NCBI GenBank assembly: GCA_032622095.1 | Contig: CP136064.1 | Coordinates: forward strand, 171,500,310-171,564,309 | Origin: Siphonodentalium dalli | Lineage: Eukaryota > Mollusca > Scaphopoda > Gadilida > Siphonodentaliidae | Length of the DNA: 64,000 bases | Direction of reading: 5' to 3' | In this document: positions 3,956-58,976 of the stretch, piece after piece | Numbering within the stretch: position 1 is the first letter of the stretch | Layout: each line of letters begins with the position of its first letter | The notes under the pieces: model-generated | Seen by the model: only the letters and a program-made list of their open reading frames with translations | Told to the model about the DNA's origin: nothing | The model's database searches: none | Translations under genes and position numbers: made by a program

Positions 3956-4102
3956 GTTTTCATAGGTTTAGGGTTCCCATATGAGGGACCTGCGCCTCTA
4001 GAAGCCATTGCTAATGGAGCGGTGTTTATAAATCCAGTGTTTCATCCTGTTAAGAATTTACATAACGATAAATTCTTCAAAGGAAAACCTACCGCCCGAG
4101 GG
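3956..4102 (+). CDS. MGAT5: MGAT5-family GlcNAc-transferase V, internal exon (donor-site lobe)
   Basis: This 49-codon exon starts after a pyrimidine-rich tract and CAG, and ends in front of a GTAAGT donor; both edges are phase 0. It encodes VFIGLGFPYEGPAPLEAI followed by ANGAVFINP and ends FFKGKPTARG. The GLGFPYEGPAPLEAIANG block is the hallmark of the C-terminal Rossmann lobe of GT18 enzymes (MGAT5, MGAT5B, C. elegans gly-2), where the UDP-GlcNAc donor binds in a GT-B fold. The family enzyme is a type II Golgi membrane protein that adds GlcNAc in beta-1,6 linkage to the alpha-1,6 mannose of N-glycans. Upstream exons are not in the window: 1-3955 shows no match to the preceding family sequence and is read as intron. 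The 3' edge is odd because its last ~37 bases and donor recur downstream at 45-base spacing. I cannot separate MGAT5 from MGAT5B by this exon alone, since a single ancestral gene is likely in molluscs. Confidence 0.95.
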
Positions 4103-4332
4103 GTAAGTTTTAATAAATTCTTCAAAGTAAAACCTACTGCCCGAGGGGTAAGTAATAATAAATTCTTCAAAGGATAACCTACTGTCCCAGGGGTAAGTAA
4201 TGATAAATTATTAAAGGGAAAAACTACTGCACGTAGGGTGAGTAATGATAAATTATTCAAGGGCAAACCTACTGCCCTTGGGGTAAGTAATGATAATTAT
4301 TTCAAAGGAAAACATGCTTCACGAGGGTGAGT
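4066..4332 (+). repeat. 45-base tandem repeat seeded by an exon end and its splice donor
   Basis: The unit begins inside the MGAT5 exon with GATAAATTCTTCAAAG and ends GAGGGGTAAGTAAT. About six copies follow one another. GTAAGT or GTGAGT hexamers stand at 4103, 4148, 4193, 4238, 4283 and 4327, so the spacing is 45, 45, 45, 45 and 44. The exon-like part of later copies has drifted, while every donor hexamer still fits GTRAGT. The open minus-strand frame over this block (4042-4266) is only the antisense of the repeat. Confidence 0.95.
4103..4332 (+). promoter_or_regulatory. Array of six candidate 5' splice sites
   Basis: Six GTRAGT donors follow the MGAT5 exon. Because the period is 45 bases, use of the second donor (4148) would add 15 in-frame residues (VSFNKFFKVKPTARG) before LTSQHPYA. 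Use of the third or later donors would read into a TAA at 4175-4177. The first donor gives the family-like protein and is the assumed major site. Whether the others are used cannot be told from the sequence. Confidence 0.6.
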
Positions 4333-5163
4333 GATTATTTCCGCTATATCATGAAAAGAAAGTATAACTCAAACTGCTTCGTGTATCCCTGCCTTCAAAA
4401 ATATAGTTCACCCAATTCTTGCTTGGGAATTATTCCAATCGATTCATAAACTTATAATATTCTTGCCAAAATGTGTGTATTTATAATGTGATTTCTTCTA
4501 AAGCCATTGTTAAATATAGGTCATGTTTAATTTTAAATTTCCCATTTTTGTTTACCAGAGGTATAGTCCTTTATCCAACTCCAATTGTTATGATATCTCT
4601 CTGAAATAGAATTTGAAATAAGTCAACGGACGTATTTGTGCCACGCCTGGTATTGCTCTTGTTCCATTGGAGCCAATTCTGGAGACTACCTCCTTCCTTC
4701 AAGAGCCATGTGGCCAAATAGTTGTTTTATTTTAAAGATACGGAAGGCATTCACAGGCGGTACAGCTAGAAAATTGTATAAAGTTTGTGAAACCTGTATA
4801 ATCAAGAAGAACATGAAAAAATAGAAGGAATTTGTTCTTATTTTCATTACCAATAACCCTCCAGTGAAGTGATTCCGCATGTTGAAGCCATTGTTTACAC
4901 ACATTACTGTAACAAGGAAGCCATTGTTGTGTTTTCAACAACTAACAATAACTCTTAAGATATCAAATAGCGTTATTCCAATATCATGTAATTTGTATGT
5001 CCCGTTGTGCTCCTGTGTGGCATCAAAAGAGTTAAAGCGACATGTCGGTTTGGAGCCCCAAGTTATACCTAGTAATGCTCACATTCTGGCCCAGTTACAG
5101 GATTAAAAATAGGTTGATAAATACTTTTATACGATCTTGCTGTGGAAAGACTTATTCAAGTCA
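4333..5163 (+). other. MGAT5 intron, nothing recognised
   Basis: This is intronic sequence after the donor array. Short frames such as 4636-4824 have no family resemblance and no splice context that I can support. Confidence 0.6.
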
Positions 5164-5406
5164 TTAACCCTTTCATGATGGGAGCTGCGCTGGTGCAGCA
5201 TTAAAGACCCTGTGCCAGTGCACTCTCTAAAATATACGAGTCTCCCATAGGGATCCTTTTATATATAAGAGAATGCACTGGTTTACAAGGTCAAGGTAAA
5301 TATTGTTAGGCCAATGCATTCTCTTATATATGCAAGTCTCCCATAAGAGAATGCATTGGCACAGGGTTTTCGCAAAATTTCAGGAAGCTCCAGTCTTAAG
5401 GCTTAA
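5164..5406. mobile_element. TTAA MITE, CATGACGGGAGC family
   Basis: The left end is TTAACCCTTTCATGATGGGA and then GCTGCGCTGGTGCAGCATTA, itself a short hairpin. The right end, AGCTCCAGTCTTAAGGCTTAA, has decayed. Two hairpin modules are inside (5210-5285 and 5311-5359), the first with CCAGTG and CACTGG outer pairs, the second with CCAATG and CATTGG. Confidence 0.8.
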
Positions 5407-5951
5407 GTTTAGAAAAATCAGGCCCCAATTTTTCTTCAGCATGAAACAATAAACAGAGTTCATTGTTAAGTCTATTCCCAAAATGGCTGGATATTGCATG
5501 AATAAAGAGCATTTGTCTGCTAAGATAAGATAAGATACGTTTTAATGGTCTTTTAATGCACAATATTGCAGGACAACCTCCATGTAAAGATAAATAGACA
5601 AAAGGAATATATGGTATATAGGTGATATAACACATACCTGATTAACAGAAATTAGTTAAATTTAGAATATTAAATTATTACTGGACATAGGTCTCCTGTG
5701 GAAAGATGTGATGTACCATATATGGTACACTGCCACTTCCGCAGTCGACCAATGCCCAGCATGAGTATGGCGTTTATCCAGGGTACTGGTATAAGACTGT
5801 AAGGAGATAGCATAAGAAAACAGTCCTAAGACCATTTATTTCCATTATGGTCCCATGCTATGCTATGCTACTAATTGAAAATGGCTGAAAAATTGCTATG
5901 ACTTCAGTAAGTTATTCAGAGTATATAAGGTATGTACACGTTTATATTGTG

Positions 5952-6167
5952 TACAGTAATGCCCGAAGTAATCGACTCGTTAACCACAGCAGAATTATGG
6001 GTAATTTTTCAGGATTTATTCGGAAATATGACTTGTTGCCATTCATCGGAAAGCTCTCGGTGAGAGCTTTCCGATGAATGGCAACAAGCCATATTTCCGA
6101 CTAAATCCTGAAAAATTACCCATAATTCTGCTGTGGTTAAGAAGTTGATTACTTAGGCATTACTGTA
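5952..6167. mobile_element. TA-flanked hairpin MITE (CAGTAATGCCC family)
   Basis: The element is a near-perfect ~105-base inverted repeat. It opens TACAGTAATGCCCGAAG and ends TTAGGCATTACTGTA, and its centre is GGAAAGCTCTC facing GAGAGCTTTCC. TA at both ends suggests a Tc1/mariner-type target. It lies ~120 bases before an MGAT5 exon. Confidence 0.9.
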
Positions 6168-6290
6168 TGTACTGACCTATCTTATTCTTTCCTTCCAAGT
6201 TACGTATACATAATTTCTGAGGGTTAAATGAGCCATGTCTGTTTATTTTGAGTGACTTGCTTCATAGAGAAGTTTTTTTTTTATTTTCAG

Positions 6291-6410
6291 CTAACTAGTC
6301 AGCATCCTTATGCAGCATCATTCATCGGAGAACCTCATGTATACACGATAGATATCAACAGTACCAAAGCTCTGTCCACGTTGCTGGAAAAATTACTACT
6401 TCAAGAGGAG
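6291..6410 (+). CDS. MGAT5: MGAT5-family GlcNAc-transferase V, internal exon
   Basis: The exon has 40 codons and is phase 0 at both ends. It follows a T-rich tract ending TTTTCAG and is followed by GTAATT. It encodes LTSQHPYAASFIGEPHVYTI and then DINSTKALSTLLEKLLLQEE. LTSQHPYA, FIG-PHV and the following VD/ID motif are shared with vertebrate MGAT5, where this segment continues the donor-binding Rossmann lobe. The second half (helix with KALSTLLEKLL) is poorly conserved in the family, as expected for a surface helix. The intron before it (4103-6290) is 2188 bases and holds a TTAA MITE and a TA hairpin MITE; the hairpin ends only ~120 bases upstream of the acceptor. Confidence 0.95.
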
Positions 6411-46638: not shown

Positions 46639-47698
46639 GGGTCTGACTGTATCAAGGGGCGTGTCTTTTAATATCCATAAACTCCTCCCATTGGTCTGCC
46701 TATTTCTATGGCCCTAATGTCTTACAAGGGCCCCTTTGTCTCCCTATTTCTATGACCCTATTGTCTTATAAGGGACGCTTTGTCCGCGTATTTCTATGGC
46801 CCTATAGTCTTACGAGGGGCCTTTTGTATACGTATTTATATGGGCCTATAATCTTACAAAGCGCTCATTGTTCATAAATCCCTCCTTTTCTAATTTCTAT
46901 TTATGCACTCGATTACCACTTGACAAAACCAAGAACATTTCTCGAAGGTTCTTAATTAGATTCTCATTCAAAGCATGGGAATTTACCTCTATTAATTGTC
47001 TCATAGCCAATATGAATGAATACATGTTTTTCTACTGTCCAGTGGTATTATATCTATGGAACATTATGAATGCCTTTGCTTAATGGAATCTATCGATGCG
47101 TCTGACAATTGTAACCTTTACACAATCGATATTCGCCGCCATATTATTCATTGAAATTTCAGCGTTAGATACAAAGATATGTATTGTACTTACGGGGACG
47201 TCTTCACCTGAAAGCGATGTGCCATTAAATTGTTAAATCTCATATCTTATCGAATTGTCATCAATGTTGCTTATAGCAATGTATACTGAGTCCTTTGTTA
47301 CCTTTCTCAACATATGAACTACCTAGTGAATTTATCAATTTGGCCCTAAAATATCATATCAATATATTTGCCTGTAAGTGAACGCTCTTTATACTTTCAA
47401 ATGCGCACATTAAGGCTTTATGAATTACCAGAACACATCCAAACAATTAATTACCGCTATAGAAATCTTGCAATTTTTTATAGAAATCCAATGACAAAGC
47501 GTCTCTCTAAAGCCCATATTATCAAAGGCGTCACGTGATCTATCTGTTGCAATACAAGCATGCCTGCACTCGATTAACCAACAGCAACGGATTACATTTG
47601 GGTTACATACCTTAAAGGTACGCTTCACTTATGTAAAATCAGGCACTACATTACACATCGAGTTGAACATGTACACCAAAGTAAGCTCATTTAAATCA
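46639..47698 (+). repeat. Left arm of the fold-back element
   Basis: The arm includes a 71-codon frame (46868-47083). The equivalent frame in the right arm (52788-53003, minus strand) has five base differences, and all five change an amino acid. That is what drift in non-coding sequence would give. Confidence 0.9.
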
Positions 47699-52175: not shown

Positions 52176-53231
52176 TGATTTAAATGAGCTTACTTTGGTA
52201 TACATGTTCAACTCGATGTGTAATGTAGTGCCTGATATTTTACATAAGTGAAGTATACCTTTATGTAACCCAAATGTGATCCATTGCTGTTGGTTAATCG
52301 AGTGCAGGCATGCTTGTATTGTAACAGATAGATCACGTGACGCCTTTGATAATATGGGCTTTGAAGAGACGCTTTGTCATTGGATTTCTATAAAAATTTC
52401 AAGCTTTCTATAGCGGTAATTCATTGTTTGGATGTGTTCTGGTAATTCATAAAGCCTTAATGTGCGCATTTGAAGTATAAAGAGCGTTCACTTACAGGCA
52501 AATATATTGATAGGATATTTTAGGGCCAAATTGATAAATCCACTAGGTAGTTCATATGTTGAGAAAGATAACAAAGGACTCAGTATACATTGCTATAAGC
52601 AACATTGATGACAATTCGATAAGATATGAGATTTAACAATATGTCCGTCTAATGGCACATCGCTTTCAGGTGAAGACGTCTCCGTAGGTACAATACATAT
52701 CTTTGTATCTAACGCTGAAATCAATAATATGGAGGCGAATATCGATTGTGTAAAGGTTACAATTGTCAGACGCATCGATAGATTCCATTAAGCAAAGGCA
52801 TTCATAATGTTCCATAGATATAATACCACTGGACAGTAGAAAAACATGTATTCATTCATATTGGTTATGAGACAATTAATAGAGGTAAATTTCCATGCGT
52901 TGAATGCGAATCTAATTAAGAACCTTCGAGAAATGGTCTTGGTTTTGTCAAGTGGTAATCGAGTGCATAAATAGAAATTAGAAAAGGAGGGATTTATGAA
53001 CAAAGAGGGCTTTGTAAGACTATAGGGCCATATAAATACGTATACAAAAGGCCGCTCCTAAGACTATAGGGCCATATAAATACGCAGACAAAGCGTCCAT
53101 TTTAAGACAATAGGGTCATATAAATAGGCAGACAAAGGGGCCATTGTAAGACAATAGGGCCATAGCAATAGGCAGACCAATGGGAGGAGTTTATGGATAT
53201 TAAAAGACACGCCCCTTGGTACAGTCAGACC
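52176..53231 (-). repeat. Right arm of the fold-back element
   Basis: This is the reverse complement of 46639-47698 with scattered changes and small indels, ending at GCTCATTTAAATCA on the inner side. Confidence 0.9.
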
Positions 53232-54585: not shown

Positions 54586-56955
54586 GAGATGGCCCACCGT
54601 TTGAAATTAAAAGTTGGACACACCTGCAAAAGATACCATATGGCCACATATCTACTTACGTCGTGTATGGGCTGTATCTTTCCAAATTATCGACCAGGAG
54701 AAAACGACACCAATAGTGAATGGCTTGTTGAAACATTTTATTCTCAAAGTAAAAGTAGCCATATTTAGACCAGACTACCTCACACTTCGCACATTAAGTA
54801 TCGATAACCTATAATATCGTATTTATGCATGTTGGGGAGTTGGAATCGTGCAGAAGTGCGAAAATATGTATGTGCATCCATTTTCACATATTCTTTTGGC
54901 AAAAGTGAAATTAGAAATCTTTGCATAGTTCAAGTCATATGCGACTGATGCCAATGTTTAAAACAAAAAAAATTTGAAAGTTGTACAGATGTCATCAGCA
55001 ATTTGTTTTATCTTTGTTGGACGACTCCCCACCCCATCATCTCTGCCACTGAATCCACTCACATATTATATTATGATCTTTTGAGACTTGATGTTCAACG
55101 TGCAGAATAGATATAGACGGGTCTATTAAGTGTCTGTTTGGAACAACCAAGCACAACTAGTCTGTTCGTTTCTACTGTGGATTCTGAACACACCACCAAC
55201 AATCGACTGCGTCAGCTATCACATGCCTTGTGGAATGCATTTCCAGACATACATCTGAAAAACAACACCATGCACATTATAATACAAACACAATTCTCAG
55301 TATCAGTCTTAGTGTGTTTGCGCCTTTCACTTATGATTAGATCTCCTATTTAGTTATAAACTATAACTTGGCATGATCGAGCGTTTATAGATATGTTGAA
55401 AATGCCCATCCCCAACTTTGCCCATGTACCAAGGCGTGGGATACCGCGGATGGCGACTGCTTGTTACTATCAGTTGTCGTTTTGCCATATCTGAACATGT
55501 AGTTACAATTACGACCTCGATAAGCCAAGCATGATAGTCAAGCGAACTTTCTATTAGCTATTCGTAATTCTTATCAGCAGTAGTTCATTGTGCGAAGGTG
55601 TACATTATTGGCTTGACTTAACTCTATTTGAGCACTTATTTTCAAAATTTATGTCATATGCTAATAATAGAGCTTCCTAGATTAAAAACTTCTAACCTCG
55701 TCTGCCAAGAAATATCAGACAATATGCAGTAACTGTTCGTCACCGTGTGGTGGGAAATCGTGACCAACCGGAGAACAACTATAGTTTGTTTCAACCTTAT
55801 TTGATGCTGGTTGCACAGTATGACACGTTAAGCGTCTCATTGACAACGAACCAAATCGCTATGTCAAGTTATAGTCATTTATGTTTGATGAGCGACGTCA
55901 GAATAAGTTTTATCAAGCTAAACATCCCCATTAAAGTGATACAAGAAAACCATAGTCAGAAATGGTAACGCCACCAAGATTATGGTATTACATATAAATA
56001 GAAATTATAAAAAATACATAAAATATTTTGATAACAATTGCGTTTAAACAAGTAATCCTTCAAATTATTACTAACAAAGTAAACGACTGTGGGGTCACTC
56101 AACAGATTATAAAGACTTGGACATAGTATACTGTAAATACTAAAATTTAAATGAAATAATTAAAAGATAAAATTTAGCAAGTAGTAAAAGTTAATTTTCT
56201 CATTTTTGTTTTGGTTAAATAAAGCAATAATTTAAATGTAACATTTGGTTTAAAAAAAAATGATTGACCGTGGCTCTTCCAATAATTGCGCGACTGACCT
56301 GGTCAATTGTTCTTAAGAAGTTGTTTTGAGAATTACTTTGGAGGGAAATAGTTGTGGCTGTGGCTTCGCAAGTAATTACCTTGGTGACGTGATGTTAACA
56401 AATCTGAACTCCAGTTAACCAAGGACGCTTCATACCAAATATAAGGTGAATTATTAATTCTTTAGAAGTTGTTTTAAGATTTACTATGGAGGGAAAGAAT
56501 TGTGGTGCTGGCTTCGCAACTATTTGACCTCATTGTAACAAATATAAATATTAGTCACTCAGGCAATAGATGTATCTATTCTGTATATTAACTTATTGGG
56601 TCTTACGTGTCTTGAGATGTCTAAATAGTTTTCGATGGACAGATCGCGCAAGGGTCCCACGCCAATCTTCTCTGTTGGGATTCCAATTGTTGGCTCATTA
56701 AATAGGCACATATGCTTAAGATACAGTCGCACGCTCCCGTAAGTCGGGTTTTGATTCCAGTTAATGAAAATATCATTGAAATAATCGGTTTCCCCCAATA
56801 AACATCTATATATTGAATATACATGTTTTGGAGCAGAATTAGGCAGTCCATATTGGACGCCATCATGGAATTTATTTTGTTTTGTTTTAATTTTCACACA
56901 TAATTATTAGTTATATGGATGGAGTTCTCATTAAACCTCACATCCTTGTATTGGT
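54586..56955. other. Mostly unassigned stretch
   Basis: Low in recognised repeats. Frames at 55138-55353 (with NRLRQLSHALWNAFPD) and 55747-55968 look slightly more coding-like than average but show no domain. A ~130-base direct duplication with GAAGTTGTTTT and TGGCTTCGCAA lies at 56310-56530. Confidence 0.45.
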
Positions 56956-57434
56956 TACAGTAATACCCAAAGTAATTGACCACTTAACCACATCAGAATT
57001 ATTGGTAATTTTTCAGGATTTGAAATCCTGAAAATTTACCAATAATTTTGCTGTGGTCAAGTGGTCAATTACTTTGGACATTACTGTATGAGGATTGAGT
57101 TATCATTAAACCTCAAATCCTTATATTGGTTACAGTAATGCCCAAAGTAATTGACCACTTAACCACAGCAGAATTATGTATTTTTTCAGCATTTACAATC
57201 CTCAAATTACCCATTATTCTGCTGTGGTTAAGTGATCAATTGCTTTGAACATTACTGTATGATGATTGAGTTATCATTAAACCTCAAATCCTTATATTGG
57301 TTACAGTAATGCCCAAAGTAATTGACCCTTTAACCACAGCATAATTATAGGTAATTTTTCAGGATTTAGAATCATGAAAAAATACACACAATTTTGCTGT
57401 GGTTAAGTGATGAATTACTTTGGACATTACTGTA
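56956..57434. mobile_element. Tandem triplicate of a short TA hairpin MITE
   Basis: Three elements (56956-57088, 57131-57259 and 57302-57434) each open TACAGTAATRCCCAAAGTAA and close TTACTGTA. Between them lies the spacer TTATCATTAAACCTCAAATC and CTTATATTGGT, so element plus flank was duplicated as a ~171-175 base unit. They are a relative of the CAGTAATGCCC family with shorter arms. Confidence 0.9.
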
Positions 57435-58976
57435 TGTAGATGGAGTTAAACCTCACATCAGTGTGTTGGGGATTTGGACCTTGACTTGGGACCTTTGGTT
57501 TTTAACGCAACAAATGCGCGTACACCTTATACACAAATTTTTTATGTAACCAGAGTTTTTCTTGGATAAGATGAGTTTGAAGCCTGCTTACATTTCAAAA
57601 TGTTGTCAGTTTTGTATTGTCTGCAGCGGATCTCGACGCGTTGAAGCAAAAGTTACAAAAGATAAAATGTGTATGTGACGAGACTATAATACAAATGAAA
57701 AAATAAATTGAGGGAGAGGTGGGCGATACAGGGAACTAAGGGTTGAACTGATATAAATTTGTAGAGCAATAACGACCAATGTTGACATATTAATGATATT
57801 ATGCATATCAACTCTACTGTTGCAACAAGGCTATAAAATAGGGGGGTGTCAGAATCTTAGTCATCTCTATATAGTGCCAGAATAGTCATTTATGGAGTTC
57901 TATAAGATGTTGGGTTGGTTATATGGACTCGGAGAAAAAAGGGGTTTGTACCGATGAAGTTGATGAACTGACATAAATTAGTGGATCGATGTTGCCATGT
58001 AATGCATCGTGATCGACTGTACTAAAGCAGCAATTATATAAAATTGGGGGGGGGGGGGGGTCTGAAATTATCTCTATAGTTGGCACCAGGATTATATAGA
58101 AAGGAATAGCAATTGATATACATATACGGCATACTATAGTAATACCATAGACATATAAGTACAAGTATCACGAGATAAAATATTACGTAACATGACTATA
58201 TACCGATGAAAGAAATAAATAAATTGGACCGGGATTAGAGGTTGGGTTGGTTATATGTGGATAATTGGATATGGAATTCATACCGATGAAACGATACAAA
58301 TTAGTGGAGCAATAAAGACACTTAGTCAGGCTACGCGGGGGAAATAGGGGTTGATACGATAGACCGAAATAAATTTTCGAGTGATAATGACCAATGTTGA
58401 CGTATAAAGTAACGCGACTGTACTGTCACACAATTATCAGGTAGAACCGGTCAAATATGGCAGGGTACAGCACGTAATTATTTCCTAGATCGAAGAAATG
58501 ATTTTTTTTTTTTCGATGATAAAATTTAACATGGGATAATTTGCCATTAAAATCGATTTATGTCTATAAAACTGTCATTTTTCAAAATTTTGAGCTGAAA
58601 CTTGGTGTGTATGTGTATAATACTACTATATTCTTAAAATGACAGAGTTCAGCGCGTAATTATGTTTTAGATGGAAGAAATTGAATTTGTTTTCGATAAC
58701 AAATTTACAGCGTGTACGGCCTACGGGTCATTGAGTATGCTCAATTTTTGTAAACAAACTTTTGTCAATAGCCGTTTTGGTCAAACTAAACCTTCTTCGA
58801 CCGGGACAGCAGATCCGAATAGTAGCTAAGATGTATTTAGATAGAATTATCAAAATAATATGACCGGTCAGGGTACATTTGAACAGAATAGAGTAGAGAA
58901 ATCTTGGTGATAATTCCAGAAAATAAAGATGTAGGAGAATCACAATTAAACTTCCCACAATGCACTTCACTAAACC
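57435..58976. repeat. Degenerate direct repeats, otherwise unassigned
   Basis: Units with GGGTTGGTTATATG, TACCGATGAA, CATAAATTAGTGGA and GACCAATGTTGAC recur near 57720, 57915, 58235 and 58340. A second pair (AGCACGTAATTATTTCCTAG near 58469 and AGCGCGTAATTATGTTTTAG near 58650) is ~180 bases apart. A run of 15 G is at 58046-58060. Confidence 0.6.

What the first reader, a model, noticed from the sequence alone, without database searches (positions are those of the whole stretch)
4066..4332. Six splice donors in a row from tandem duplication of an exon end in MGAT5
The last ~37 bases of a conserved glycosyltransferase exon plus its GTAAGT donor are repeated at 45-base period. All six donors still fit GTRAGT while the exon-derived part drifts. 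The period is a multiple of three: donor 2 would add 15 residues in frame next to the donor-sugar lobe, and donors 3-6 would include the TAA at 4175. This could give protein variants or a nonsense-mediated switch, or compete for U1 binding and change splicing efficiency.
Basis: partly seen in the sequence, partly recalled or inferred. Interest (0 to 1): 0.75.

Follow-up and report, generated by a model that had tools for sequence, protein, structure and literature searches.

The report
Repeated exon end at MGAT5 splice donor
The end of one exon of a sugar-transferase gene, with its splice signal, is repeated six times in a row; it looks like one of many local duplications in this animal's genome, and published splicing rules predict that mainly the first signal is used.

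Summary
Window 4064-4332 holds six head-to-tail copies (45 bp; the last 44 bp) of the last 37-39 bases of an MGAT5 exon plus its donor. All six donors fit GTRAGT. Donor 2 would add 15 in-frame residues; donors 3-6 would include the TAA at 4175-4177; donor 6 is also out of frame. It is the only Glyco_transf_18 gene found in a 2.23-Gb genome.

The functional reading is only partly supported. Donor columns are not clearly protected (2 changes against 4.1 expected, p=0.19; simulated chance that all six stay GTRAGT 0.02-0.06). Extra copies drift. Donors 1, 2, 3 and 5 share one 9-mer and both flanking introns exceed 2 kb; published minigenes of that layout used the upstream donor exclusively, so donor 1 should dominate.

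The array is not unique. Of 217 exon regions examined, 18 (MGAT5 included) carry a local duplication visibly spanning a splice site (10 donor, 8 acceptor). Exon edges are hit as often as, or less often than, non-coding DNA. Best explanation: a boundary-seeded minisatellite, tolerated because the outermost splice site still works. The prevalence interests more than the single case. No RNA or related species could be examined.

The parts
3956..4102 (+). MGAT5 (Glyco_transf_18) exon, 147 nt, phase 0 end, using donor 1
   Evidence: translation; PDB match E 4.5e-17; PF15024 match 5.5e-20
4064..4108 (+). copy 1: last 39 exon bases + donor 1 (GTAAGT at 4103)
   Evidence: closest to majority consensus (2 differences)
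4109..4153 (+). copy 2, donor 2 GTAAGT at 4148; the 45-nt extension 4103-4147 is open in frame (VSFNKFFKVKPTARG)
4154..4198 (+). copy 3, donor 3 GTAAGT at 4193
4175..4177 (+). in-frame TAA inside copy 3; included if donor 3, 4, 5 or 6 is used
4199..4243 (+). copy 4, donor 4 GTGAGT at 4238
4244..4288 (+). copy 5, donor 5 GTAAGT at 4283
4289..4332 (+). copy 6, 44 bp, most diverged (9 differences, its gap included), donor 6 GTGAGT at 4327, out of frame
4103..6290 (+). intron from donor 1 to the acceptor before 6291, 2188 nt
6291..6410 (+). next MGAT5 exon (LTSQHPYAASFIGEPHVYTID...)

Best explanation
A minisatellite that was seeded across the exon-intron junction by ordinary local tandem duplication and then grew to six copies and drifted. 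The spliceosome sees six U1 sites of similar strength, but with long introns on both sides the exon is defined from its upstream acceptor, so the exon-proximal donor 1 makes the normal MGAT5 mRNA; downstream donors are decoys, at most leaky, giving a +15-residue form (donor 2) or stop-containing RNA (donors 3-6). Such arrays persist here because local tandem duplication is common in this genome and duplications across exon edges are tolerated as long as the outermost site works. Shown: array, gene, frames, donor sequences, similar cases in the exons sampled. Inferred: donor choice, tolerance, absence of function.
For: Array and donors. Nine PF15024 matches in order on C4, none elsewhere. Donors 1, 2, 3 and 5 share the 9-mer GGGGTAAGT; flanking introns 4274 and 2188 nt. 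Published minigenes with two identical CAG/guaagu donors and 365-nt introns used the upstream one exclusively, and near-equal donors between long introns favour the upstream one (PMC9225289). Extra copies: no clear coding bias, a stop in copy 3, a 1-nt loss in copy 6. Donor columns 2 changes against 4.1 expected, p=0.19. Same kind elsewhere: 67-bp exon end + donor duplication in two paralogous myosin genes, ABC exon end 60 bp x3.4, three CCT chaperonin exon ends at 63, 39 and 75 bp; acceptor-side cases in SNF2, ABC, myosin and CCT exons. 18 of 217 regions have a local duplication visibly spanning a splice site. Duplicated-block coverage at exon match edges (0.05 at starts, 0.02-0.03 at ends) against 0.039 in the window, 0.060 in long flanks and 0.01-0.02 inside exons.
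Against: All six donors still fit GTRAGT although the copies carry 31 substitutions from the consensus; simulated chance 0.02 (31 independent changes) to 0.06 (22 changes). Predicted U1 pairing is slightly weaker at donor 1 (-10.3 kcal/mol) than at donors 2-5 (-11.7 to -11.9), and all six exceed the 7 other donors that I placed by eye in this gene (-4.2 to -7.9); in human data the stronger donor is the dominant one in 86% of events. Among 8 donor-side cases with an extra intact GT, the nearest such GT lies at a multiple of three in 6, against 1 of 7 for acceptor-side cases with an extra intact AG: a post hoc hint that extra donors are sometimes used. No transcript was seen.
Confidence: 0.7

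Rival explanations
1. The array is a used alternative-5'-splice-site cluster: donor 2 makes a +15-residue MGAT5 and donors 3-6 make stop-containing, NMD-degraded RNA that tunes enzyme level.
For: Six intact strong donors; donor 2 open and in frame, TAA at 4175; frame bias among donor duplications, 6 of 8 at multiples of three; in human segmental duplications 66% of boundary-repeat modifications also have a transcript with the repeat retained (PMC2812944).
Against: Exon-definition rule favours donor 1; no clear coding constraint in extra copies; donor conservation p=0.19; similar cases elsewhere, some with broken extra sites (L134, L197 copy 2; L082, one copy of L106), look like drift; 3 of the 6 in-frame donor cases (L126, L200, L204) have a stop in the extension.
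Confidence: 0.2
2. The extra donors serve as a U1 sink or strengthener that improves recognition of this exon without being cut.
For: Six U1 sites with pairing energies of -10.3 to -11.9 kcal/mol, stronger than the other seven donors examined in the gene.
Confidence: 0.07
3. Assembly or sequencing artefact.
For: Single assembly; no reads seen.
Against: Copies differ pairwise at 6-13 of 45 columns, which expansion errors of an assembler would not create; similar cases occur in other genes.
Confidence: 0.03

Closest known systems
Internal tandem repeats at exon-intron boundaries in human segmentally duplicated genes (De Grassi and Ciccarelli 2009, PMC2812944; outline and 12 passages seen)
   Same: Minisatellite-size units (on average 30 bp x4 there, 45 bp x6 here) that straddle an exon-intron boundary.
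   Different: There: variable repeats in primate-specific paralogs, with transcript evidence. Here: a gene found once in the genome, drifted copies, no transcripts.
Competing equal 5' splice sites under exon definition (Carranza, Shenasa and Hertel 2022, PMC9225289; abstract and first part of Results read)
   Same: Adjacent donors of near-equal strength in an exon between long introns.
   Different: Two donors in human genes and minigenes there; six in a natural tandem array here.
[quoted passage not shown] abstract read)
   Same: Local duplication crossing an intron-exon boundary copies splice signals.
   Different: No new intron is indicated here: the array lies at the start of an intron that joins two conserved exons (GKPTARG|LTSQHP).
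Short-distance tandem donors GYNGYN (PMC1779574; search listing only)
   Same: More than one donor at one exon end.
   Different: That motif puts two donors within a few bases; here they are 45 bp apart by sequence duplication.

Membership tests
MGAT5 / Glyco_transf_18 (PF15024) | Exons match the PF15024 profile over the curated cut-off, in order | tested here: met
   9 of 9 matches lie on C4:171474868-171512927, in order, all over the cut-off; 3 of them include a stop, which lies outside the splice sites that I placed by eye
MGAT5 / Glyco_transf_18 (PF15024) | Closest solved structures are MGAT5 | tested here: met
   5 of 5 distinct PDB sequences matched by the exon are named alpha-1,6-mannosylglycoprotein 6-beta-N-acetylglucosaminyltransferase A, one of them its secreted form
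Minisatellite at an exon-intron boundary | Head-to-tail copies of a 10-100 bp unit (size range recalled) | tested here: met
   period 45, 5.9 copies
Minisatellite at an exon-intron boundary | Unit contains exon end and splice site | tested here: met
Minisatellite at an exon-intron boundary | Copy number varies between individuals, paralogs or species | not testable with these tools
   one assembly, gene found once, no relatives held
Regulated alternative 5' splice sites / NMD switch | Junction reads from more than one donor | not testable with these tools
   no RNA data held
Regulated alternative 5' splice sites / NMD switch | Alternative donors under purifying selection | tested here: inconclusive
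   p=0.19 by column permutation; 0.02-0.06 by simulation
Intron gain by tandem duplication | A new intron between copies | tested here: not met
   the conserved exon ends at copy 1 and the next conserved exon starts at 6291, with all other copies in the one intron between them; absence from relatives could not be tested

The most novel reading that the evidence does not exclude
In this lineage, common local tandem duplication has multiplied splice sites at several percent of exon edges, and at donors the surviving extra sites are used often enough that out-of-frame periods are purged; MGAT5 with six donors is an extreme member of a large natural library of duplicated splice sites that feeds new isoforms.
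Probability: 0.2. Interest if true: 0.8.

Novelty: new member of a known kind. Interest (0 to 1): 0.5.

Why it matters
The single array is a natural multi-donor construct in a conserved gene. More important, if about one exon region in thirteen carries a duplicated splice site (17 of 216 outside the given one in this non-random sample, paralogs counted apart), the genome would, by extrapolation, offer thousands of natural experiments on how the spliceosome chooses between near-identical neighbouring sites, and on how often minisatellite growth at exon edges turns into new exon sequence. RNA-seq mapping alone would test this.

Tried and rejected
Coding constraint in the extra copies: not supported, 7 synonymous and 14 nonsynonymous changes in the 4 ungapped extra copies against 22% synonymous expected (tail 0.17). 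Donor constraint: not significant by permutation; treating the +3 change as neutral after seeing the data gives p=0.012, which is biased and not relied on. Genome-wide pattern of three GGTRAGT at 30-60 bp: 10775+11737 hits against 8288+9235 for the reversed pattern; the listed rows, all on C1, are unrelated satellites, so this is not a test of exon edges. Enrichment of duplications at exon edges: looked likely from the raw list (20 at exon edges against 6 intron-only), rejected by comparing coverage with the window and long flanks.

Frame bias of donor duplications: suggestive only. Taking the nearest extra copy that keeps GT, 6 of 8 offsets are multiples of three (45, 60, 63, 75, 78, 111 against 67 and 68); binomial tail at 1/3 0.020, and 0.045 for 5 of 7 without MGAT5. 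In L197 the nearer copy at 39 has lost GT and a further GT copy at 136 is not a multiple of three; paralogs L038/L040 were counted once; L134 lost GT and L209 has no donor copy, so both were left out. An earlier grouping that took in two more echo copies whether or not they had a donor gave 6 of 9, tail 0.042, and 5 of 8 without MGAT5, 0.088. Acceptor cases with an extra intact AG: 1 of 7 nearest offsets a multiple of three (27 against 127, 47, 94, 62, 55, 83). These sets were made after looking.

Mollusc haemocyanin domain PF14830: no match, uninformative by the tool's own control. Species: not identified; a scaphopod/chiton paper search and passages of PMC12005716 did not settle it. PMC8724738 (passages) was read for duplicated splice sites and not used. 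Paper searches listed no paper that I could recognise, from title and abstract start, as describing multi-donor tandem arrays of this kind; this is no proof of absence.

Full report
Observation. TRF reports a 45-bp array at 4063-4327, 5.9 copies. Reading the sequence gives six copies at 4064-4332, the last 44 bp long, with donors at 4103, 4148, 4193, 4238, 4283 and 4327 reading GTAAGT, GTAAGT, GTAAGT, GTGAGT, GTAAGT, GTGAGT. Copy 1 is the end of the exon 3956-4102, whose translation matches GlcNAc-transferase V (MGAT5) chains in the PDB at E 4.5e-17; the next exon starts at 6291. PF15024 matches nine exons in order on C4 and nothing else in G000. Three of these matches run over a stop (one TGA, two TAA); by eye these lie outside the splice sites, in flanking intron. 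The finding's coordinates, donor positions, frame and TAA position are correct.

Where it is. G000 has 2.23 Gb in nine contigs; its genes are those of an animal. For one muscle myosin exon the best solved-structure matches are 3i5f, 1dfk, 1dfl and 1b7t; that these are squid and scallop myosins is from memory, and it suggests a mollusc or near relative. The species is unknown to me.

How constrained are the donors? Against the majority consensus the copies differ at 2, 4, 4, 8, 5 and 9 columns (one of the nine in copy 6 is its gap), 31 substitutions in all. The six donor columns hold 2 changes, both A to G at +3, against 4.1 expected (p=0.19; 5 of 45 rotations of the six-column block, its own included, do as well). 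A simulation of random substitutions leaves all six donors within GTRAGT in 2% of trials for 31 independent changes and about 6% for 22. The four ungapped extra copies carry 7 synonymous and 14 nonsynonymous changes, against 22% synonymous expected (tail 0.17); copy 3 has a stop and copy 6 lacks a base. This is compatible with drift, with a weak hint of donor retention.

Which donor should be used? Donors 1, 2, 3 and 5 have the same 9-mer GGGGTAAGT. Duplex energies with the U1 5' end are -10.3 (donor 1), -11.9, -11.9, -11.7, -11.9 and -10.9 kcal/mol; the seven other donors of this gene that I placed by eye range from -4.2 to -7.9. The flanking introns are 4274 and 2188 nt. Carranza and colleagues (PMC9225289, abstract and first part of Results) report that near-equal donors between long introns favour the upstream one, and that minigenes with two identical CAG/guaagu donors used the upstream donor exclusively; they also report that the stronger donor is dominant in 86% of events. 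I therefore expect donor 1 to make most or all MGAT5 mRNA, with leak to donor 2 possible. This is inference; no RNA was seen.

Is it special? I examined exon regions in the same genome: 9 of 9 MGAT5 matches, 50 of 85 myosin-head matches (28 as loci, 22 fetched later), 55 regions for 73 SNF2 matches (one region, L081, holds three matches), 15 of 19 ABC, 8 of 135 kinase, 20 of 93 P450, 3' ends only, 40 of 53 CCT and 20 of 53 DEAD matches; fetched. Of these 217 regions, 26 contain a local self-match of at least 21 of 24 bases at offsets of 15-259, against 0 of 217 after one base shuffle each.

Sorting the 26 by position and by eye: 6 lie in the intron only (L054, L116, L141, L146, L220, L228). 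20 involve an exon edge. In 18 the copy visibly spans the splice site: 10 on the donor side (MGAT5; the myosin pair L038/L040; ABC L126; the myosin pair L133/L134; CCT L194, L197, L200, L204) and 8 on the acceptor side (L081, L082, L105, L106, L127, L142, L183, L195). In L209 only exon bases are copied, without a donor; in L207 the fetched stretch ends before the acceptor of the copy would be reached. That makes 18 of 217, 17 of 216 without the given one, and 15 with each paralog pair counted once. Exon edges in this list were placed by eye. Examples...GAAAAG|GTAGGT repeated at 67 bp in a myosin gene...TCCGAG|GTAAGT at 63 bp and ...GCTGAG|GTAAAT at 75 bp in CCT genes; TTATTCAG|GAATATTGG four times, 41-47 bp apart, at the start of an SNF2 exon. 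Some extra sites are broken: GT to GA in L134 though its paralog L133 keeps GT, GT to AT in one copy of L197, AG to TG in L082 and to GG in one copy of L106.

Are exon edges preferred? No. The share of positions inside a locally duplicated block (offsets 15-160) is 0.039 in the window and 0.060 in the flanks of the 37 long loci, 0.05 at exon match starts (160 regions), 0.02-0.03 at exon match ends (180 regions), and 0.01-0.02 inside exons. TRF coverage for periods 20-150 gives 0.017 to 0.048 as background, depending on the set. So duplications are frequent outside coding sequence and are about as frequent, or somewhat less so at exon ends, across exon edges. The simplest account is mutation plus tolerance: a boundary-spanning duplication leaves one complete splice site at the outermost copy. 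Limits: match ends only approximate exon ends, and I could not run the same survey in another animal, so whether this rate is unusual is unknown.

A result against the passenger reading. Among donor-side duplications with an extra intact GT, the nearest such GT lies at offsets 45, 60, 63, 75, 78 and 111 (multiples of three) against 67 and 68: 6 of 8, binomial tail 0.020, or 0.045 for 5 of 7 without MGAT5. On the acceptor side, 1 of 7 nearest intact AG copies is at a multiple of three. If real, extra donors are used often enough for frameshifting ones to be removed. Against it: the sets were made after looking, and three of the six in-frame extensions (L126, L200, L204) contain a stop. I keep this as the novel case at probability 0.2.

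Compared with what is known. Minisatellites at exon-intron boundaries that change splicing were described in human segmental duplications (PMC2812944, outline and passages); boundary-crossing tandem duplication can also create introns (PMC4974935, abstract), which is not indicated here. The MGAT5 array is a new member of the first kind, notable for six intact donors in a conserved gene found once in its genome.

Changes on checking: the survey count was lowered from 20 to 18 of 217 for visible splice-site-spanning cases, and the stop in L200 and the acceptor-side frame count were added.

Noticed in passing
L038, L040, L126, L133, L134, L194, L197, L200, L204 (donor side); L081, L082, L105, L106, L127, L142, L183, L195 (acceptor side): Local duplications spanning splice sites in myosin, ABC, SNF2 and CCT genes of the same genome.
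   Followed up: partly
G000:C2:149826753-150603706: About 96 of the 135 kinase-domain matches listed lie in this one cluster, mostly with 281-residue open frames and identical scores.
   Followed up: no
window 5954-6170; similar sequence at 56918-57448 and in L009 and L141: A palindromic element (CAGTAATGCC..., GGTAATTTTTCAGGATTTA and its reverse complement) resembling a foldback element or MITE, inside the same MGAT5 intron and elsewhere.
   Followed up: no
window 46687-46859 and 53015-53177: A 44-bp minisatellite with similar units on opposite strands about 6 kb apart (consensus units compared by eye).
   Followed up: no
L081: An SNF2-family exon start with its acceptor is repeated about four times at 127 bp; three of the copies match the SNF2 profile separately.
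   Followed up: partly
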